Source: Terramyces sp. JEL0728 (lineage: Eukaryota > Chytridiomycota > Chytridiomycetes > Rhizophydiales > Terramycetaceae). From it: DNA of 11,057 nucleotides. The translations under genes and the position numbers were made by a program. Every line of letters starts with the position of its first letter. Positions within the stretch are counted from its first letter, which is position 1. The notes beneath the pieces are model-generated. The model worked only from the letters and a program-made list of their open reading frames with translations, was not told where the DNA came from and did not search any database. Where the stretch lies: the NCBI GenBank assembly GCA_027603945.1, contig JADIIU010000227.1, forward strand, positions 1 to 11,057, in the 5' to 3' direction. Shown one piece after another: positions 1,822-11,057 of the stretch.

Positions 1822-1827
1822 TTTATT
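1822..1827 (-). terminator. AATAAA overlapping the stop codon
   Basis: On the minus strand AATAAA covers the TAA stop (1825-1823) of the long Cys-rich gene, so the cleavage signal and the stop share bases. Confidence 0.5.
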
Positions 1828-2827
1828 TATACTTTTCTTTCAATTCCTCTCTATTTCTTTTCCACTGCTGCTTCAGTTTAGCATTTTCAAACACTTTCTG
1901 CAAGATATTTCCGATACTAAGGAACGCAACCGCCATAGGAATGTAGAAATTGTACCAAGTGACAACAAAACTAGTTATGCAGTTGGTCTGGATGCATTTA
2001 CTGCCTGGGTCGCAAGCATCTGTGAATAAATTACAGTTGGATTCAAGTAACAAACATTTACCCGAATGACACCCCTTGTTGTACGCACAGTTGCTGCTGT
2101 TCAGGCAAAAGTTGTCACCAAAAGCTGTGCACTTGTTTGTTTGATTTTTGCATCCCCAACCACTTGAACAAGCGTTTTTGAATGCTTGGCAATTGTCTGT
2201 TTTCAGCAAACAAGTGCTATTCGTACATCCGTAACTGGAATTGTCGATGCTACACCAACCATTAGAATCACACACGGTATTACAATCATCATCTGTTCCG
2301 CAGTGGTTTTTGCTATAATCTTGACAAGCGTTTGAGGTTGAATTGCAGAACTGTTTGGAACTGCAGGCATTTGCGAATTGTTTACAGTTACTAGTCTTTC
2401 CCACACATTGAGAATTTACACATCCACTCCCACTTCCACAGTTCGAATCATATTTGCAGTGATTGCTATCGTAATTCTTGCATGAATCAGTCAAGTGTGG
2501 ACAGTACATGTTGTCGCCGCAAATCCCAGGAAATCGTGAGCATTTATCTACTTTTGCTGAACATATTCCATCCACGCAAGTGAAATTCTGTTTGCATTTA
2601 TTGCAGGTTGCAGCCACAGGTTGACACCTATTACTGATACAAGTATATCCACCACTAGTATCACAGCTATCACACGGTGATTGCATAAAATTTGAAGGGT
2701 AGCATACACCATTCATACACTCACTGGCCCATCCACAATCAGCACTCGTATCGCAATTTCCTCCTGAACCAAATGCTTGAGTATTCACCAATTGAAATAA
2801 CTGAAATATCAATAATTGAAGCTGCAT
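1823..2827 (-). CDS. Cysteine-rich single-pass membrane protein, long paralogue (334 aa)
   Basis: Begins with a signal peptide (MQLQLLIFQLFQLVNTQAFG); the ATG at 2827 is chosen because upstream codons lack ATG. A Cys-rich ectodomain of about 270 residues follows, with many short C-x4-DC, C-x-NG-x-C and N-x-S/T sites. Near the C-terminus lies one membrane segment (FYIPMAVAFLSIGNILQKVF) and a basic tail (KLKQQWKRNREELKEKYK), so it is a type I protein with a short cytosolic tail. After a region shared with the neighbouring short paralogue, the middle contains three degenerate units of about 50-65 residues, each starting near N-H/F-C and ending in a C-N/Q-x-F-x-x-A-C-x-S type segment. One unit carries an extra CDSNGWC insert. 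The family is unknown to me; EB-like or dickkopf-like disulfide modules are the nearest general description. Intronless as read. Confidence 0.8.
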   Translation of the reverse strand: MQLQLLIFQLFQLVNTQAFGSGGNCDTSADCGWASECMNGVCYPSNFMQSPCDSCDTSGGYTCISNRCQPVAATCNKCKQNFTCVDGICSAKVDKCSRFPGICGDNMYCPHLTDSCKNYDSNHCKYDSNCGSGSGCVNSQCVGKTSNCKQFANACSSKQFCNSTSNACQDYSKNHCGTDDDCNTVCDSNGWCSIDNSSYGCTNSTCLLKTDNCQAFKNACSSGWGCKNQTNKCTAFGDNFCLNSSNCAYNKGCHSGKCLLLESNCNLFTDACDPGSKCIQTNCITSFVVTWYNFYIPMAVAFLSIGNILQKVFENAKLKQQWKRNREELKEKYK

Positions 2828-2918
2828 TTTTTTAAAAAGCAAAGGTTTCACAATTCCCAAAACGGCACCAAACCGAATATTTGCAAAATCATAAGAGAGA
2901 ACGGCAGTATTAATTCTA

Positions 2919-3398
2919 TTATAAAGATTCTCTCTTTCCTTTCCACTTCTTTTTCAACTTTGCATTCTGAAATACTTTTTGAATCAAGTTGACAAACGAT
3001 ATAAACCCAATTACAACTGGTACGTAGCAGTTATACCACGTCAGTCTGAATTTGATACAAGCAGTGTTGCTGCAGTACCCGCTATCCCCACAGCTCCCAC
3101 TGAAAATGTTACAATGATCCATTTTAGATACACAAGTTTCGTTTAGACATGCGAATCCTGTATTGCAAGAGCTTGTACATAGTGTTTCTGTTGGTCTGCA
3201 TTGGCTACTGCCGGTACAAGTGTAGTCTGTTCCACCGCACAGGCCATGAAAGCAGTCGCCTATAAATAGCGTTGGATAGCAGTTGCCATTCAGACATTGA
3301 TGGGCAAATTGGCAGTCGTTTGATTGTTGGCAAGCACCGTCTGCTCCAAGCGCTAAACTATACACCACAGTCAATATCGTTAAAAGGAATATCTTCAT
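2919..3398 (-). CDS. Cysteine-rich single-pass membrane protein, short paralogue (159 aa)
   Basis: Tandem paralogue of the gene at 1823-2827. It has a signal peptide (MKIFLLTILTVVYSLALGADG), an N-terminal Cys module matching the long copy (C-x4-DC...C-x-NG-x-CYP), then C-x-x-R-P and VSKMDHCNIFSGSCG segments that also have counterparts there. It goes straight to the conserved end: LTWYN, a membrane segment (VPVVIGFISFVNLIQKVF) and a basic tail (NAKLKKKWKGKRES). The three middle units of the long copy are absent, so the pair differs by expansion or loss of Cys modules while the membrane and tail part is kept. That conservation suggests the tail interacts with something inside the cell. The ATG lies only 45 bp after the SLP2 stop; the short paralogue's own stop is 91 bp before the long copy's ATG. 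Confidence 0.8.
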   Translation of the reverse strand: MKIFLLTILTVVYSLALGADGACQQSNDCQFAHQCLNGNCYPTLFIGDCFHGLCGGTDYTCTGSSQCRPTETLCTSSCNTGFACLNETCVSKMDHCNIFSGSCGDSGYCSNTACIKFRLTWYNCYVPVVIGFISFVNLIQKVFQNAKLKKKWKGKRESL

Positions 3399-3443
3399 TG
3401 TTTTTTGTCAAGTGCACAGGAAAATTCTTAATAAGAGCTCAAT

Positions 3444-4418
3444 TCATTTATTTGCTTTCATTACAGCCATCATCTGAGTTACCATTCCAGCTACATCACT
3501 AATATTTTGCGGTACAACAACAGTAGTTCCTTCCTTGGCAATATTGCCAAATGATTCAATATACTTTTCAGCAATATTCAACTGAACAGCGTCCTTGCTC
3601 TTTTCATCCAGCAAAGCTTTACTAATCCTGGCAATGGCTTCAGCATTAGCTTGGGCTGATATTAATTAAAGGAACCTTTTAAAAGAATAGATTGAGCTTC
3701 ACCTTGGGCTGTATTGATTTGTCTGGCTTTGTAAGCTTCTGATTCCAAGATTTGTGACTGTTTTTGACCTTCAGCAACGTTAATTGCTGCTTGCCTCTGA
3801 CCTTCAGATTCTAAAATCTCGGCTCTCTTTCTTCTTTCAGCAGATACTTGTTGGTGCATTGAAGTAACTACATTCTCTGGTGGATGAATATCTTTAATTT
3901 CATATCTAGTTGAAATATGTTTACCTGAGACATTGAATCCCCCATTCCGACGATGCCTGGTTCATTGATTGAACTATACACTGGTTCAAGTGACTTCTTT
4001 CTGCCAAAGTTCTATCCAGAGTCATTTGTCCAATTTCAGCTCTCATTGTAGTCTGTGCCAGCTGAGTAATCGCATATTCACAATCATCAATCCCATAGCT
4101 GGCTTTATAAGCATCATAAATCTTGTAATAAAGCACACCATCAAGTGACAGAGTAACGTTATCCTGAGTAATTGCCGACTGTGAAGGAATTGCAACGGCG
4201 ACTTCTTTCAAGTTCTTTACATATTTGATTGTATCAAGCACTGGGAGGAGAATTGCTAAACCTGGAGATAAAATCGAGTGGAATTTTCCCATACGTTCAA
4301 CCACCCATGCTTCTTGTTGCGGAACAAATTTTACTACTGTGTTCATTGGCAATTGCTGGTAGAACCTGATTTGACTTGACCTTGTTGCCTTTGGAGTGTA
4401 TCTGACTAGTCTCTGCAT
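3444..4418 (-). CDS. SLP2: Mitochondrial stomatin-like protein 2 (SPFH/band 7)
   Basis: Three exons on the minus strand: 4418-3925, 3905-3676 and 3655-3444, giving 311 aa. The N-terminus ([19 protein letters not shown]) is basic and hydroxylated like a mitochondrial targeting peptide. The SPFH domain follows with the SLP2 hallmarks [17 protein letters not shown]-x-[14 protein letters not shown] and [12 protein letters not shown]. The splices restore [15 protein letters not shown] and [18 protein letters not shown], both typical of SLP2, followed by a coiled-coil C-terminal half. SLP2 scaffolds inner-membrane microdomains that bind prohibitins and proteases. It is shorter than human SLP2 (356 aa), lacking the acidic end. 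The introns are 19 nt (3906-3924, GTAAACATATTTCAACTAG) and 20 nt (3656-3675, GTTCCTTTAATTAATATCAG). The last sense codons AAT AAA also form the polyadenylation hexamer. Confidence 0.93.
3447..3452 (-). terminator. AATAAA formed by the last two codons of SLP2
   Basis: The final Asn-Lys codons plus the TGA read AATAAATGA, so the hexamer lies inside the coding sequence. Confidence 0.45.
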
Positions 4419-4694
4419 TTAGATTAGTTTTTTTGTGACTGGATTTTTGTGCTGATATTTATATTTCTTTGTTAGTCATCCTCACATGGTTTATTATCAT
4501 TGCATTCTCTTTGATCCTTTGCTCCTTATGATGCAGTTCGTCACATGGATGTTGTGCAGTGCATCAGCGATTGCCAAATATCAGCAGTACTCGACCATTC
4601 CTACATATCAATCTGCATTCTATAATACCTCTATTTTGAAAATACTCTGTCAGATATTAATATTTGTTTTGATTTTTTTTCAACATCAAAAAAC
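4419..4694. promoter_or_regulatory. Divergent intergenic region between SLP2 and mS26
   Basis: 276 bp that must hold both promoters. A hydrophobic ATG frame (4486-4746, +) runs through it into mS26 in another frame; I see no support for it as a gene. A T-rich tract (4670-4680) lies just before the mS26 ATG. Confidence 0.4.
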
Positions 4695-5278
4695 ATGCAG
4701 AGAGCAAGACCAATTCACCCAAAAACACTGTTCAACAAACAAATGACAGAACTGCGAAAGAAATATCTAAACGAACACTTGCAAAATGAAAACACAAAAC
4801 AAGAAAAAAAGGAAAAAATCCAACTGCAACAGCAGGAAATCAGAGACTTTAAAGACTTGGATATCAAGAAATACAAGCAAGAAAAAGTGGACTATCTGAA
4901 AGGCAAAGGAGAATCGACTCATGAGTGGAAAGAATTCGTTGATAGCCGCAAGAAGCAGCGATTGCAGAACTATATTCTGAATCAAAAGAAAATCTCTGAC
5001 AACAGAATGAACTCTTTGGTTTACTTGCTAACCAATTCTGTCTCTTTTGTTACTTATGAAAACATGAATTCGTATGTGCAAAAAGTACTTGCCAACCCTA
5101 TATCTGGTAATTTTATTTTAATGTAGATAATAATTCGCTAGAGTACTTGAAGAATCATTTTGAAAATGAACGGGAAATGGTTTTGAAGGATTTGGTGAAA
5201 GGGACTTGGAAAGACACGGAAGGGATTGATTTGTTGAAAAAGAGGATGGAACGCATGAAAAATATAAACTCCAACTAA
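4695..5278 (+). CDS. Mitochondrial small-subunit ribosomal protein mS26 (PET123-like)
   Basis: Two exons, 4695-5106 and 5127-5278, giving 187 aa. The protein is highly charged and helical from residue 15 to about 110 (runs such as KQEKKEKIQLQQQEIRD), then has RKKQRLQNYIL and a conserved block, LTNSVSFVTYENMNSYVQK followed by VLANPIS. This matches the mS26/Pet123 pattern in which a long coiled helix leads to an aromatic F-[IV]-T-x-E-N-[LM] motif. mS26 sits at the head and mRNA-channel side of the mitochondrial small subunit. The 20-nt intron (5107-5126, GTAATTTTATTTTAATGTAG) must be removed: without it the frame stops at once, with it the C-terminus continues as DNNSLEYLKNHFENE. AATAAA directly abuts the TAA. 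Family assignment rests on pattern and length, so it is a little less sure than the gene structure. Confidence 0.8.
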
Positions 5279-5284
5279 AATAAA
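5279..5284 (+). terminator. AATAAA abutting the mS26 stop
   Basis: The hexamer starts on the base after the TAA stop (5276-5278). Confidence 0.5.
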
Positions 5285-5307
5285 CTGTGGGTTTAAACTG
5301 CTACTCT

Positions 5308-5313
5308 TTTATT
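5308..5313 (-). terminator. Polyadenylation signal of the AlkB-like gene
   Basis: Minus-strand AATAAA 58 bases beyond the stop at 5371. It lies close to the expected 3' end of mS26, so the convergent transcripts probably overlap or nearly touch. Confidence 0.45.
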
Positions 5314-5370
5314 GCACTAACCCTACGATATTGTAATCCTATTCTAGAGTGACAACATCTGATTTCCAGC

Positions 5371-5979
5371 CTACGGCTCTTGATTCAGACTTCTCAACGT
5401 AATCGAAATACGTTCAGTCCGATCTACTCTCTTTCCATTGACAATATCAAAAGTTTGGCTAGGAATCCCGTGTGTCCAGTCCCATCTCATCAATCTCAAA
5501 TTACCTAGCTTCGCCCTCCAGCAATACGATATCTCCAGGCTCGAGAAACACGGCGTAAATATCATCAGAATACAAGTGCTTGAATTCCATCATACAGGTT
5601 CCTTGATTATTTCACACAAACCATAACACGAACAAATTAATACTCTGTCTCTGAATCGTTCTAGGTCTATATGGTCTACTATTCCATCTCCTATTTCGTA
5701 ATAATTCGCAATCATTTGATTAAAGTCGCCGTATTTGAATAGGACTCCAAGCGGGGATGGTAGAGGACCGAAATGCATTGTTTGGTTATTAACTAGCTTT
5801 GGCTTGATGAACTGCACTAGGGAATCAAGGTCTGTTTTGTTGATTTCATTTTTTAATACTGCCATTCCATTTGGTAACGTTTGATTTTCAATTGAATCGT
5901 GTCCCATATAGTCATTATCTGGTTCTGAACCAAATAGCTCCAGCATATCTGTGGTTTCTTGGTATCCAGGTTTCTCCAT
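5371..5979 (-). CDS. AlkB-family 2-oxoglutarate/Fe(II) dioxygenase
   Basis: Three exons (5979-5622, 5601-5505, 5485-5371) give 189 aa. AlkB enzymes use Fe(II), O2 and 2-oxoglutarate to demethylate nucleic acids or proteins. All core residues are present after splicing: HxD at His103/Asp105 (YYEIGDGIVDHIDLERF), the distal His157 in WDWTHGIP, and R-x5-R at Arg177/Arg183 (RISITLR) for 2-oxoglutarate. The segment PGDIVLLEGEARW is typical of the ALKBH group. Introns are 20 nt (5602-5621, GTTTGTGTGAAATAATCAAG) and 19 nt (5486-5504, GTAATTTGAGATTGATGAG); without splicing the first intron leads to a TGA before the distal His. Layout resembles eukaryotic ALKBH4/6/8-like domains, without extra domains, so the substrate cannot be told. 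Its ATG is 31 bp from that of LSM8. Confidence 0.9.
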
Positions 5980-6010
5980 CCAAACTCAAATTATATTTTT
6001 TCAGATCTGA
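5980..6010. promoter_or_regulatory. 31-bp divergent promoter gap (AlkB-like / LSM8)
   Basis: Only 31 bases separate the two start codons. It contains an AT stretch (TTATATTTTTT) that could serve as core element on one side; the promoters must extend into the coding sequences or be shared. Confidence 0.5.
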
Positions 6011-6338
6011 ATGCAAAAGGCAGAACTTCAACTTCAGTCGCTCGTAAATAATAAAGTATCAGTCCTTACAAACGATGGCAAGATATTAATTGGGACTCTA
6101 CTCGGATTCGACCAAACTACAAATTTAATTCTTTCTGGGACAAAAGAGCGTATTTTTTCACAGGAAGGAACGATAGAGGATGAATTGGGGTTATTTTTAC
6201 TTCGAGGTTTGGGTTTAGTTAATGGTAGGTGATTCTATTATGGTTGTTGGGCAAGTGGACGATGAGATTGATGGTGAGATTGAGTGGAATGAGATTAAAG
6301 CTGACCCACTCCCTAAAATGTCAATAAAAGAATTTTAA
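6011..6338 (+). CDS. LSM8: U6 snRNA-associated Sm-like protein LSm8
   Basis: Two exons, 6011-6206 and 6229-6338, give 101 aa. LSm8 makes the LSm2-8 ring nuclear and binds the U-rich 3' end of U6 snRNA. Sm1 is visible as NDGKILIGTLLGFDQTTNLIL (residues about 20-40), with the LSm8-type G-F-D-Q-T-x-N-L-I-L; Sm2 is LFLLRGDSIMVVGQVD, completed only when the 22-nt intron (6207-6228) is removed. The C-terminus (DEIDGEIEWNEIKADPLPKM) resembles LSm8's usual E-I-D...A-x-PL ending. Unspliced, the frame stops at a TGA just after the intron. AATAAA lies inside the coding sequence eight bases before the stop. The rhomboid gene begins 36 bp after the stop. Confidence 0.94.
6323..6328 (+). terminator. AATAAA inside the last codons of LSM8
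   Basis: The hexamer lies in the coding sequence seven bases ahead of the TAA; the 36-bp gap before the next ATG contains no other AATAAA. Confidence 0.4.
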
Positions 6339-6374
6339 TTTGCATCAACAATCTTCTCGTCCTAATCTCACAAA

Positions 6375-7040
6375 ATGCAATTTGGGACTGCAGTATTTAT
6401 AGGATTAATTGGTACGGCTGATGTGATATTCTTTAATACCAAATCAGAATACCATTATTTCAATGTTCACGACACTAGCATTACTTGGAAATCAATTGTA
6501 ACTCACTCGTTCAACCATGTTGACCCATACCACTTGATTACAAATTTCCTTTCGATCGCTTCGTCAAGCTTGTTGCTGGATTTAGGATTTTGGAAGTCTG
6601 CTTGTCTTTACCTGGCCAGTGTTCTTTCAGGCAGTCTCGGGTTTATTGCTTTTCACAATGAGCAGCAGTTGGTTGAAATCATCAGGAACGATATCGGCAA
6701 ATTGACTAATTTCTTTGGTAATTCTTCCAGTGATGTATGGACAGATACGTTTACAAAATGGAAAACACAATTCAAAACCAAATATTCCCTTGTAGGAAGC
6801 AGCTGTGCAGCCTACGGATTCATGGGTGCAGAGTTTGTATATCTGTACTCTAAAATCACTGACATTTATGCAAAGAAATATCGAAAAGAATATAAGCTGA
6901 AAAAGGAGCATGATCTGGCACAGTTAATGTCCTTGGGAATATTTAAGAGCGTGCAATTAGCAGCGGATTTGGTATATTTCAACACTTGCCATTTCGTTGG
7001 ATTTTGTTCAGGAGCAATGTTTTACTACGTTATTCAATAG
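6375..7040 (+). CDS. Rhomboid-family intramembrane serine protease
   Basis: A 221-aa polytopic protein, intronless. The rhomboid signature is complete: TM2 has HSFNHVDPYHLITNF with His53 and Asn57 (oxyanion site), TM4 has GSSCAAYGFMGA with catalytic Ser143 in the G-x-S position, and TM6 has CHFVGFCSG with catalytic His206 in the H-x2-G-x3-G motif. I count about six membrane segments (near 2-20, 52-70, 73-93, 138-158, 185-200 and 203-220). A hydrophilic stretch of about 45 residues between TM3 and TM4 and a Lys-rich loop (YAKKYRKEYKLKKEHD) between TM4 and TM5 are unusual in size. There is no clear mitochondrial presequence, so it may act in the secretory pathway or the ER rather than as PARL/Pcp1. 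Being active is inferred from the intact dyad. Confidence 0.88.
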   Translation: MQFGTAVFIGLIGTADVIFFNTKSEYHYFNVHDTSITWKSIVTHSFNHVDPYHLITNFLSIASSSLLLDLGFWKSACLYLASVLSGSLGFIAFHNEQQLVEIIRNDIGKLTNFFGNSSSDVWTDTFTKWKTQFKTKYSLVGSSCAAYGFMGAEFVYLYSKITDIYAKKYRKEYKLKKEHDLAQLMSLGIFKSVQLAADLVYFNTCHFVGFCSGAMFYYVIQ

Positions 7041-7479
7041 ATATTATTTGAATAAAGAGCACCAACTTGGTTTGATAAGTCACCGAAATTTGTTGTCAAG
7101 CACCAAGATGGTGATCTTACAGAGTGCAGTAGGAATAATCACCTAGTTGCCAGTTCCGGATATTCACGCTATCCACTAATGTCGTACAATTGGAGATACT
7201 AGAGATATTTTCTGTCTTAATTAAAATATTACAAAGACTAAATCTGGATATGCATTGAATAAATTTCCACAGAAATTACTTTGATAGCGCACCAAAGCTG
7301 CCGTTTTGAATTGCTGGAATTCGATAGAAATTACCAGCCAGCATAAATTATCGGGCCAGGACTTCCAATGCCAATCAGAGTGTAAAAAACGAAGCGTGGA
7401 GGATTGTCCACGATGCTAAATAGTGCGATTGTGACGTAAGCGCAGGCTATTGTTGGAGACTCTTTGCATCTCTTGTCGA
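7041..7479. other. Intergenic region before the 7TM pair
   Basis: Holds the rhomboid 3' end and the promoter of 7TM gene A. On the plus strand a frame from about 7058 to 7203 is open but without upstream ATG. On the minus strand 7331-7460 reads like a membrane segment (VFYTLIGIGSPGPIIYA); a 21-nt intron-like stretch lies at the end of that frame, and removing it would extend the frame by 12 codons. A start codon for it would have to overlap gene A's start, so I do not call a gene. See findings. Confidence 0.35.
7051..7056 (+). terminator. Polyadenylation signal of the rhomboid gene
   Basis: AATAAA ten bases after the TAG at 7038-7040. Confidence 0.55.
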
Positions 7480-8365
7480 ATGTCAACAACATTGAATCCC
7501 AGTTCATTAACGGGGATAGTGTCCATAGCAGTATCATCAATCACAGTAATGATAAATATATTTGTGCTTTGTAAGATACTCTGCAAGGACGTGATATCCA
7601 ATTCAAAACTGAAATACAAGCTGTTGTTTTTCCAAATTGCAGCAGTCTTGCATCTAATGCTCTACTGCAGTTTTTATTTTGTTTTTAAGGAAATAATTTG
7701 GTTTGAAATTGGAACTCTATTCAGCGCTATAATTTTATACACGGTAAATTCAATAAACCTGGAGGTAATTTGGAATTTAAATAGATCTTGGGATTGTTCA
7801 AAGCATTAGAAGAACGAATTACGGAAACAAAATTAGCAAAAGCGCGAATTGGAATACTACTGTTACTGGTTATTTGCTCAGGAGGGCTGGTAATTCAAAT
7901 GTTTTACAATTCAATACCGATATTCGCCGCTCTGGTACAGGTTTCCTAATCTTAGTATGCGCAACTCGGTATGCTGGTTCATATCTTATTTACCATTCTC
8001 TACGATAGTAAAACAAAATTAAAGTAGATTTCCAAGCAATGTATCTTACTAGCATTGTGTACAACTTTAAAAAAGTAAAGACCAATATTCCAATCACACG
8101 GCCAATGCAAAATGCAATCCTTACCTGGCTCTTTCTCGTAATGGCAGACTGGATATCGGTGGGACTGTACGTGTATAACATTGTCGTTTATCCACCAGAT
8201 ACACTATACCTACTCAACACATGTGCAACGAACATCCACTCTTCTCTCATGATATTGGTATTTTTGCACATCAAGGATCTGCTTTTCCATGGCAGAAAGA
8301 AACAAGCAAACAGATTCGAAGAGACTGCTATTAAACTGAACCATCCTGCGCACAGTCAATCATGA
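7480..8365 (+). CDS. Seven-transmembrane receptor-like protein A
   Basis: Four exons (7480-7764, 7785-7934, 7956-8007, 8028-8365) give 274 aa. About seven hydrophobic segments are seen near residues 12-31, 46-69, 75-93, 117-134, 144-174, 190-215 and 221-245. A basic stretch (VYNFKKVKT) precedes the sixth segment and a cytosolic tail starts LLFHGRKK. This looks like a 7TM receptor, but I recognise no GPCR class motif (no DRY or NPxxY). Introns are 20, 21 and 20 nt (7765-7784, 7935-7955, 8008-8027), proven by exact correspondence with paralogue B. The start ATG (MSTTLNPSSLTG) is the same in both. AATAAA starts on the last base of the TGA. A ligand cannot be inferred; surface sensing is a guess. 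Confidence 0.8.
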
Positions 8366-8370
8366 ATAAA
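8365..8370 (+). terminator. AATAAA sharing a base with the stop of 7TM gene A
   Basis: Sequence TGAATAAA: the A of the stop codon is the first base of the hexamer. Confidence 0.5.
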
Positions 8371-8473
8371 TATAGCGATTAGGAATATTAATGCAATCTT
8401 TAGACATTCTACATGAGTGCAGTTTCTTGGAATGGCCACCAATTCGCGAATGACATAAGACATTCTTTCCTTG

Positions 8474-9362
8474 ATGTCTACCACGCTAAACCCCTCATCG
8501 CTTACAGGAAAAGTATCGATTGCAGTATCAGCAATCACCATAATCACCAATATCATTGTAATCAGCAGAATACTCAAAAAGGACGCGATTTCAAACGCAA
8601 TACTCAAATACAAGCTGCTGGCATTTCAGATTATAACAATATTGCATCTGTTTCTCTACTGTTGCTTTTATTTCGTTATAAAAGTGCGGATATGGTTCAA
8701 TGTCGCCGCTCTTTTCAGCGGAATACTAATTTATATTATGAATATATTGAATATAGAGGTACACTATGACTAAAAAGACGCTGAATTTGTTCAAGGCGCT
8801 CAATGATAACATTACTGATTCAAAGATTCGCACTGCTAAAATTGTCACTACGGTATTTTGGGTAATCCTCTGCGGAGGGCTGGTTATCCAATTGGGATAT
8901 CAAGAGAATCCTTTTTTCGTGTCGTGGGTAATTTCTGCTGATTTAGTATGCCCAACTGGGGATGTTGTCGTATACAATATTGGCTGTTATCTATGACAGT
9001 AATTGTTTCTAACGTTAGATTTTCAAGCATTTTATCTCGTCGGCTTGGTTTATAATTTCAAAAAAGTCAAAACCAAGCTGCCTATTACCAAACCACTGCG
9101 CAATGCAGTAGCCATGTGTTTATTACTTGTACTGGCTGATTGGGTATCTGTTGGAATATACGTCTACAACATTGTGTACGAGCCAGTGGATACGCTCTAT
9201 CTTATAAATACTTGCTCAACCAATATCCATGCATCATCCATGATTGCTGTATTCATGCACATCAAAGAATTGCTTTTTCATGGAAGGAAGAAAGCAATAG
9301 AAAAGAAAGAGCCGCCTAAAACTGACGATGAAACAAAGAAATTAGCACATACATGCAGCTGA
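8474..9362 (+). CDS. Seven-transmembrane receptor-like protein B
   Basis: Tandem paralogue of gene A, starting 108 bp after its stop. Four exons (8474-8758, 8778-8927, 8947-8998, 9019-9362) give 276 aa. The first three exons have the same lengths as in A (285, 150 and 52 nt) and all introns fall at the same codons and phases. Introns are 19 nt (8759-8777, GTACACTATGACTAAAAAG), 19 nt (8928-8946, GTAATTTCTGCTGATTTAG) and 20 nt (8999-9018, GTAATTGTTTCTAACGTTAG). Shared blocks include STTLNPSSLTG, YAQLGML, VYNFKKVKT, DWVSVGIYVYNIV, DTLYLINTC-x-TNIH and LLFHGRKK; the tails after that differ. Conservation is strongest in the C-terminal half, around the last two membrane segments, suggesting a common coupling or folding constraint. 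The family is unknown to me. Confidence 0.8.
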
Positions 9363-10157: not shown

Positions 10158-10186
10158 AAAGAGCTTTTGCATAAAAGTAAAAAACG

Positions 10187-11057
10187 ATGACTGCCAAGTT
10201 GAAAAGCGTTTCCACCATGCTGTCCTTGTTGGTATCTCTGGTTGCAAGCCAAAGCTTAAACTACAAAGTTACGCTAGCGATCAGCCAGAATCTGTACAGC
10301 GATTGCTCGTCATGGGGATGCTCGCTAACGTCACCAACAAACAAATACTTTGCAATGATGCAACATGATTGTCAATTTGCTGTTTATACCTCAGGAACAA
10401 ATGCCCAGGTATTCAAAGCGCCAACCTATCTTGGTGATGGACACCAATGCTTTTTGGCTCCCCAAGCAAACGGACAGTTGATTGTTTACCAGAATGCGAC
10501 TGGGACTCCTGCAGTGGTTTATGCATTCAACAAGGCACCAGCAAACCCAGCTGCATCATATTCTTTAAACATGCAGGATGATGGAAATTTAGTCTGGAGC
10601 GATAATAACGGCCTCGTCGTATGGTCCATCAATCCAGTTACACCGTTATTCACCATCACCAATCCATCAACAATATACAACGCTGTAATGAATGGTGGAA
10701 GCACCTTAAACAGCGATTGTAACTCATTTGGATGCGGGATTTCTTCGCCAAACGGCGACTATTTGGCAGTGATGCAGCACGACTGTCTTTTCGCCATCTA
10801 CACTGCAGATATCAAGACTCAGCTGTACAAGACCAACACTTACCAAGGCGGAACTCCAAAGTGTTTCTTGGCTGGTGAAACCAACGGACAATTGGTGGTA
10901 TTTAAAACCTTGAATGGCGTAAATACCAAATTACAAGTGCTGAATCCAAATACTGTTGCCAAGTTTGATAATTATACTCTGACTCTTGGTGACAGTGGTA
11001 ATCTGATTTGGGCTGATAGTAAAGGTAATGTCGTTTGGTCGGCTTTACCAATTCTAG
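10187..11057 (+). CDS. Secreted tandem B-lectin (bulb-type) protein, 5' part
   Basis: The frame is open from the ATG at 10187 to the window edge, 290 codons, no intron. A signal peptide (about residues 1-22, ending SLVAS) is followed by two similar units of about 130 residues. Each starts L-x-S-DC-x-S-[WF]-GC, then MQHDC-[QL]-FA-[VI]-Y, a C-FLA segment with NGQL-[IV]-V-[YF], and a closing DDGNLVWSDN or DSGNLIWADS strand ending in VVWS. This matches the three-fold B-lectin (GNA-like) beta-prism II, where Q-x-D-x-N-x-V-x-Y sites bind mannose; here the sites are degenerate (QHDCQFAVY, NGQLIVYQ, QDDGNLVWS), so sugar binding is possible but not assured. Paired Cys residues would link each unit internally. 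The protein is probably a secreted or wall-associated carbohydrate binder; more units may follow. Confidence 0.85.
   Translation, partial: MTAKLKSVSTMLSLLVSLVASQSLNYKVTLAISQNLYSDCSSWGCSLTSPTNKYFAMMQHDCQFAVYTSGTNAQVFKAPTYLGDGHQCFLAPQANGQLIVYQNATGTPAVVYAFNKAPANPAASYSLNMQDDGNLVWSDNNGLVVWSINPVTPLFTITNPSTIYNAVMNGGSTLNSDCNSFGCGISSPNGDYLAVMQHDCLFAIYTADIKTQLYKTNTYQGGTPKCFLAGETNGQLVVFKTLNGVNTKLQVLNPNTVAKFDNYTLTLGDSGNLIWADSKGNVVWSALPIL

What the first reader, a model, noticed from the sequence alone, without database searches (positions are those of the whole stretch)
3656..9018. Twelve spliceosomal introns of only 19-22 nt
Frame restoration in conserved or paralogous proteins fixes introns at 3656-3675, 3906-3924, 5107-5126, 5486-5504, 5602-5621, 6207-6228, 7765-7784, 7935-7955, 8008-8027, 8759-8777, 8928-8946 and 8999-9018. 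Four are 19 nt, six 20, one 21, one 22. All are GT...AG; most carry a TNAY-like branch site (CTAAC, CTGAT, TTAAT, TCAAC) only 3-5 bases before the end, which leaves almost no room between 5' site and branch site. Comparable sizes are known in chlorarachniophyte nucleomorphs, some ciliates and dicyemids, but would be remarkable in a fungus-like nuclear genome and imply a modified spliceosome.
Basis: partly seen in the sequence, partly recalled or inferred. Interest (0 to 1): 0.88.

Follow-up and report, generated by a model that had tools for sequence, protein, structure and literature searches.

The report
A fungus with 20-nucleotide introns
Genes in this window, and in the 220 kb sampled from the same 15-megabase genome of a chytrid fungus closest to Boothiomyces, are interrupted by predicted introns mostly 19 to 22 nucleotides long, likely removed by a largely ordinary spliceosome; introns this short were known from a few protists and relict algal nuclei, and my searches found no report of them in a fungus.

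Summary
Homology or paralogy supports eleven: stomatin-like protein, AlkB-type oxygenase, LSM8, and two tandem paralogs sharing three intron positions to the codon and phase; 5107-5126 rests on frame and motif. A gene-finder started with uniform intron lengths (10-150 nt) on 220.7 kb of the same 15.0 Mb genome converges on 364 of 447 introns at 19-22 nt; seven decoy signal pairs show no such peak. Trained without the window, it recovers nine of twelve exactly. The likely branch A sits at position 14 or 15, with 5 or 6 nt after it. Prp8 (98% identical to Boothiomyces sp. JEL0866 over its longest exon) places the genome among Rhizophydiales chytrids, not ciliates or nucleomorphs. Prp8, U2 snRNA, U2AF65, SF1 and the Cwc25 N-terminus look canonical. 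Isy1 lacks its usual N-terminus, as reported for Stentor (15-16 nt introns), though its gene start is uncertain. U6 was not found. Nine searches of open-licence papers found no description of such introns in a fungus. The introns are well supported; splicing itself is not shown, for want of RNA.

The parts
3656..3675 (-). intron, 20 nt, stomatin-like gene
   Evidence: recovered held-out
3906..3924 (-). intron, 19 nt, stomatin-like gene
   Evidence: gapless junction against QmcA; recovered held-out
5107..5126 (+). intron, 20 nt, gene weakly like MRP-S26
   Evidence: frame and motif; no homology proof
5486..5504 (-). intron, 19 nt, AlkB-type oxygenase gene
   Evidence: weak motif and not recovered held-out
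5602..5621 (-). intron, 20 nt, AlkB-type oxygenase gene
   Evidence: recovered held-out
6207..6228 (+). intron, 22 nt, LSM8 gene
   Evidence: not recovered held-out
7765..7784 (+). intron 1, 20 nt, paralog A
   Evidence: recovered held-out
7935..7955 (+). intron 2, 21 nt, paralog A
   Evidence: recovered held-out
8008..8027 (+). intron 3, 20 nt, paralog A
   Evidence: recovered held-out
8759..8777 (+). intron 1, 19 nt, paralog B
   Evidence: weak motif and not recovered held-out
8928..8946 (+). intron 2, 19 nt, paralog B
   Evidence: recovered held-out
8999..9018 (+). intron 3, 20 nt, paralog B
   Evidence: recovered held-out
3444..4418 (-). stomatin-like (SPFH / Band_7) protein gene
4695..5278 (+). 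gene weakly like mitochondrial ribosomal protein S26 (below cut-off)
5339..5979 (-). AlkB-type 2OG-Fe(II) oxygenase gene (stop codon lies inside this span)
6011..6339 (+). LSM8 gene
7480..8365 (+). paralog A, hydrophobic protein without Pfam match
8474..9362 (+). paralog B

Best explanation
The twelve segments are GT...AG stretches of 19-22 nt that interrupt coding frames, and they are most likely ordinary U2-type spliceosomal introns of a Rhizophydiales chytrid whose introns appear to have shrunk genome-wide to that size. Likely working (inferred): U1 would read the 5' end (commonest form GTAATT). U2, whose branch-binding sequence is intact, would pair with YTRAY so that the A at position 14 or 15 attacks the 5' site. 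The AG only 5-6 nt further on would then be used, leaving no room for a polypyrimidine tract between branch and AG. Intron length follows from two short rulers, 13-14 nt from the first base to the branch A and 5-6 nt from the A to the end, which together give 19, 20 and 21. The major machinery is kept; a changed Isy1 N-terminus perhaps eases the tight lariat. Shown: segments, frames, length distribution, motif geometry, factor sequences. Not shown: excision in RNA.
For: Window. Sampled genome (220,708 bases): a gene-finder starting from uniform lengths gives 364 of 447 introns at 19-22 nt (94, 153, 88, 29), and 362 of 449 when up to 400 nt is allowed. Decoys: 18-23 nt make up 373 of 447 for GT-AG, against 22/481, 46/453, 51/543, 57/519, 44/418, 12/400 and 17/443 for seven decoy pairs. 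Branch A at 14 or 15 in 207 of the 243 core introns with the full motif (243 of 364; shuffled interiors 67.6). Prp8: six introns (20, 19, 22, 21, 21, 21 nt); junctions gapless in 112/114, 118/118, 113/117, 114/116, 117/117 and 106/109 of the listed homologs that span them. Placement. Factors.
Against: No RNA evidence. U6 was not found by model or by three patterns; U1, U4 and U5 were not searched for in the whole genome. The full gene-finder missed or mis-bounded 5 of 12 window introns (3906, 5486, 6207, 8759, 8928), the held-out one 3 of 12. 5486 and 8759 have weak motifs: 36% and 33% of random 19-22 nt GT..AG pairs score as high. 83 of 447 called introns lie outside 19-22 nt; those of 31-150 nt (59) have weaker signals (8% reach 5 bits, against 52% of the core and 1.8% of random pairs), but some may be real. 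The unspliced U2AF65 hit stayed below its family cut-off (251.7 of 310.3 bits).
Confidence: 0.93

Rival explanations
1. The segments are chance GT...AG stretches in pseudogenes, or sequencing errors that break frames.
For: Two of the twelve (5486, 8759) have motif scores that a third of random pairs reach; no RNA.
Against: Sharp peak at 19-22 nt for GT..AG only, not for seven decoy pairs; the same intron positions and phases in two diverged paralogs; Prp8 junctions gapless in nearly all listed homologs that span them.
Confidence: 0.02
2. The contig belongs to a nucleomorph, a ciliate or another group where such introns are already known.
For: The lengths match nucleomorph introns, 18-21 nt (PMC10245619, passages).
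Against: Prp8 on another contig of the same assembly, with introns of the same size, is 98% identical to a Boothiomyces protein and joins it in a tree at 100/100; LSM8 and AlkB-type genes here are ordinary nuclear genes. The window itself holds no taxon marker of its own, but its paralogs find only a Boothiomyces protein.
Confidence: 0.01
3. The segments are removed by something other than the spliceosome, such as DNA elimination, tRNA-ligase type splicing or translational bypassing.
For: Spacing is at the limit of what a spliceosome handles; U6 was not found.
Against: GT..AG ends with a branch-like motif at a fixed place; Prp8, U2, U2AF65, SF1, Cwc25 and Isy1 are encoded; chytrids are not known for DNA elimination (recalled).
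Confidence: 0.02
4. Tiny introns are real but share the genome with a sizeable class of longer introns that the gene-finder places badly.
For: 83 of 447 calls lie outside 19-22 nt; the Isy1 start may hold a 70-nt intron.
Against: The longer calls have weak splice signals; allowing up to 400 nt leaves 362 of 449 at 19-22 nt.
Confidence: 0.1

Closest known systems
Chlorarachniophyte nucleomorph introns, 18-21 nt (PMC10245619, passages)
   Same: Same size class and narrow range
   Different: Relict algal nucleus with more than 800 introns in about 300 genes, against a 15 Mb fungal nuclear genome
Stentor coeruleus introns, 15-16 nt (PMC9505925, abstract and passages)
   Same: Tiny AU-rich introns throughout; commonest intron starts GUAAUU; Isy1 N-terminus not conserved
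   Different: Here 3-7 nt longer, branch A at 14/15 rather than 10/11, a clear branch motif, and the Cwc25 glycine N-terminus kept
Mikrocytid introns, 16-17 nt (PMC10245619, abstract and passages)
   Same: Extremely short, uniform introns
   Different: 224 predicted introns in a parasite with a reduced spliceosome; here roughly 25,000 by extrapolation, with canonical factors among those looked at
Paramecium and Nyctotherus introns, around 25 bp (PMC5014332, start of abstract in a listing)
   Same: Genomes with only ultra-short introns
   Different: Ciliates, and somewhat longer introns
Introns of Blastocladiella emersonii, another zoosporic fungus, 55-333 nt (PMC2773782, abstract and passages)
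   Same: GT..AG, CTAAC-like branch site
   Different: At least two and a half times longer

Membership tests
U2-type spliceosomal introns | GT...AG ends | tested here: met
   12 of 12
U2-type spliceosomal introns | Branch-site motif near the 3' end | tested here: met
   243 of 364 core introns with full YTRAY against 67.6 after shuffling; 71 of 106 in the motif-free set against 27 of 223 longer ones
U2-type spliceosomal introns | Removal restores a conserved reading frame | tested here: met
   Prp8, LSM8, AlkB type, stomatin-like, paralogs
U2-type spliceosomal introns | Genome encodes the major spliceosome | tested here: inconclusive
   Prp8, U2, U2AF65, SF1, Cwc25 and Isy1 found; U6 not found; U1, U4, U5 not searched genome-wide
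U2-type spliceosomal introns | Excised from RNA as lariats | not testable with these tools
   no RNA data
Stentor-type tiny introns | 15-16 nt, branch A at 10 or 11 | tested here: not met
   19-22 nt, A at 14 or 15
Stentor-type tiny introns | Cwc25 N-terminal glycine plug lost | tested here: not met
   MGGGDLNLKKSW present
Stentor-type tiny introns | Isy1 N-terminus not conserved | tested here: inconclusive
   Usual motif absent here and in Boothiomyces JEL0838, but the start of the gene is uncertain
Chlorarachniophyte nucleomorph introns | Located in a relict algal nucleus | tested here: not met
   chytrid fungus by Prp8
U12-type (minor) introns | Minor 5' site and TCCTTAAC-type branch site (recalled) | tested here: not met
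   consensus GTAATT and YTRAY; minor snRNAs were not searched for

The most novel reading that the evidence does not exclude
A fungal nuclear genome rich in introns has collapsed nearly its whole intron complement to 19-22 nt, governed by two fixed rulers (13-14 nt to the branch A, 5-6 nt onward), and has convergently lost the Isy1 N-terminus that in other eukaryotes reaches the branching site, as the unrelated ciliate Stentor did, while keeping the Cwc25 plug: a second, independent solution to the minimal intron.
Probability: 0.5. Interest if true: 0.88.

Novelty: new variant of a known kind. Interest (0 to 1): 0.8.

Why it matters
Fungal introns are usually several tens of nucleotides or longer (recalled), and the shorter cases I met in print sit in ciliates, relict nuclei or reduced parasites. 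A chytrid with perhaps 25,000 introns of 19-22 nt would show that such shrinkage needs neither a relict nor a visibly stripped-down spliceosome. It gives a fungal system in which the sterics of a 14-nt lariat loop, the role of U2AF without a pyrimidine tract and the role of the Isy1 N-terminus can be tested. It also warns annotators: the relative's deposited Prp8 has seven extra residues at one such junction, inside a stretch that is gapless in 112 of 114 listed homologs, and a survey of over 3000 genomes excluded introns under 30 bp (PMC10639083, abstract and passage).

Tried and rejected
U6-like hits (E 0.0033 and 0.0045 on re-scan) are below the gathering score and, in L044, lie inside a predicted protein gene: rejected as chance. 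The gapped U6 pattern gave one match, and its control one as well: rejected. SSU rRNA: the family search did not complete; a short pattern found nothing. Rfam scans of the held stretches found only two tRNAs at gathering score. Enrichment of in-frame stops in 21-nt introns (76% of 88, against 53% and 65% in the other phases) was not pursued, because detection favours stop-bearing introns of length 3n. The full gene-finder's doubtful calls in the window (for example 14, 26, 10, 98, 94 and 129 nt) were rejected on homology or paralogy. It also called a 15-nt intron in SF1 and 13- and 25-nt introns in Cwc25, which I did not verify. Searches for printed reports of tiny introns in chytrids led nowhere; one search returned no paper at all. 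PMC11649378, PMC3569864, PMC3680246 and PMC12075339 (passages only) had nothing to the point.
Full report
OBSERVATION. The twelve segments are exactly as described. They fall in six genes, which are open when spliced: a stomatin-like protein (Band_7 E 4.2e-35 and Band_7_C 2e-23), a gene weakly like MRP-S26 (below cut-off), an AlkB-type oxygenase, LSM8, and two tandem paralogs. At the junction LSM8 is gapless in both printed alignments, and the oxygenase at both of its junctions. The stomatin-like protein is gapless at 3906-3924 against QmcA, with a two-residue gap beside the 3656-3675 junction. The paralogs are identical at 162 of 274 residues; their introns sit at residues 95, 145 and 162 with the same phases, although lengths differ at two of three (20/19, 21/19, 20/20), the intron sequences have diverged, and only 68 of 157 third positions at conserved residues agree. 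That fits inherited introns, not errors. The intron at 5107-5126 has no homology proof but the best motif score of the twelve.

GENOME-WIDE. The window lies on contig 227 of a 15,016,339-base assembly of 231 contigs. In a mechanical scan GT..AG has its highest counts at 19 and 20 nt (19 each of 258 hits), a peak that none of seven control pairs shows at the lower threshold; at the higher one all counts are small, 13 GT..AG hits in all. A semi-Markov gene-finder that starts with equal weight on lengths 10-150 moves by itself to 19-22 nt: 364 of 447. Seven decoy signal pairs, run the same way, put 12 to 57 of 400 to 543 'introns' in 18-23 nt, against 373 of 447 for GT..AG, and reach total scores of 14,393-15,558 against 17,739. 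With lengths to 400 nt allowed it is 362 of 449. Calls outside the peak have poorer signals. Simple scaling (364 in 220.7 kb) suggests about 25,000 tiny introns in the genome, a rough figure. Trained on the other 209,651 bases only, the finder recovers 9 of the 12 window introns exactly; the full run recovered 7.

GEOMETRY. 243 of 364 core introns carry full YTRAY; shuffled interiors give 67.6 on average. In those 243 the A is at position 14 (118) or 15 (89), with 5 (116) or 6 (92) bases after it. Because the learned acceptor model could force this, I repeated it on the first-pass set, found without motif or length model: of 74 introns with the motif, 57 have A at 14 or 15 and 5 or 6 bases after it (sum of the table; 185 of 237 in the final set). 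So 19 is mostly 14+5, 20 is 14+6 or 15+5, 21 is mostly 15+6. GTAATT is the commonest start (50 of 364); G at +5 is only 16% among the 153 introns of 20 nt.

ORGANISM. The longest Prp8 exon finds Boothiomyces sp. JEL0866 at 98% identity, then Entophlyctis luteolus at 86% and Batrachochytrium dendrobatidis at 85% (120 of 2922 matches listed). A tree of 22 Prp8 proteins joins own and JEL0866 (100/100), then Gorgonomyces (100/99), then Batrachochytrium (100/100); it is rooted at the midpoint. Boothiomyces belongs to Terramycetaceae, Rhizophydiales, Chytridiomycota. The deposited JEL0866 Prp8 carries seven extra residues exactly at my first intron and is gapless at the other five junctions; seven residues would fit a 21-nt intron left in by annotation (inference). 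Isy1 is nearest to Boothiomyces sp. JEL0838 (92%). So this genome is close to, but not identical with, both strains.

MACHINERY. Prp8 is complete with six introns of 19-22 nt. U2 scores 140.2 bits, and its GUGUAGUAUCUG stretch is intact. U2AF65 aligns over RRM1-RRM2 (E 9.1e-62) and itself has introns of 20, 20, 19 and 19 nt; unspliced, it stays below its family cut-off. SF1 passes PF16275 and, by eye, has its KH region, zinc knuckles and RWGS motif (labels recalled). Cwc25 begins MGGGDLNLKKSW, unlike Stentor, where the glycine motif is lacking (PMC9505925, passages). Isy1 differs. Among 120 listed homologs 66 match a strict M.RN.EKA start; most of the other 54 are close variants or begin at the inner Met before RF or RW. 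Boothiomyces JEL0838, like this genome, has neither, and no such motif occurs in the locus upstream. Globomyces is intermediate. Three further listed proteins (P0125, P0185, P0211) also lack it and look mis-started, so absence in an annotation is not proof by itself. The Isy1 N-terminus, which elsewhere reaches the branching site, is not conserved in Stentor either (PMC9505925, passages). Caution: the 70 nt before the conserved part look like three tiny introns in a row, so the true start is uncertain. U6 could not be found: assembly gap, interrupted gene or divergence.

MECHANISM (inferred). Removal by the major spliceosome through intron definition. With 5-6 nt between branch A and the end there is no pyrimidine tract in the usual place; in a subset of human short introns SPF45 replaces U2AF65 on truncated tracts (PMC8363638, abstract and passages), whereas U2AF65 is kept here and SPF45 was not looked for. 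With 13-14 nt from first base to branch A, U1 and U2 contacts would nearly touch, so U1 may leave before U2 is fully seated. An altered Isy1 could make room for the small lariat loop.

KNOWN OR NEW. Introns of 15-17 nt (Stentor, mikrocytids) and 18-21 nt (nucleomorphs) are in print (PMC9505925, PMC10245619). I found no report for a fungus in nine paper searches. These cover open-licence papers only and were read as listings or passages, so a subscription paper could exist. Deposited Boothiomyces gene models may already contain such introns without comment.

Noticed in passing
L041/L042, G000:C35 about 111600-112350, minus strand: Isy1 gene without the usual MARNEEKAQSM N-terminus; 70 nt before its conserved part look like three consecutive tiny introns (17 or 20, 20 and 21 nt) a few bases apart.
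   Followed up: partly
whole genome G000: No U6 snRNA found by covariance model or three patterns, although U2 is present and canonical.
   Followed up: partly
core introns of the sampled stretches: Commonest 5' site GTAATT; the usual +5 G is rare (16% in 20-nt introns). Stentor's commonest intron also starts GUAAUU (PMC9505925, passage).
   Followed up: no
core introns of 21 nt: 76% of 88 contain an in-frame stop, against 53% and 65% in the other phases; detection bias or selection.
   Followed up: no
window 7480-8365 and 8474-9362: Tandem hydrophobic paralogs; A has no Pfam match and one relative in the protein search, in Boothiomyces JEL0866, 177 aa and cut short.
   Followed up: partly
G000:C30:109075 and G000:C33:23034: The Cwc25 gene occurs twice with identical predicted protein and introns: two haplotypes or a recent duplication.
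   Followed up: no
window 1823-3407, minus strand: Two adjacent cysteine-rich protein genes without a Pfam match over cut-off.
   Followed up: no
window 10181-11056, plus strand: Protein with B_lectin-like sequence below the Pfam cut-off, open at the end of the window.
   Followed up: no
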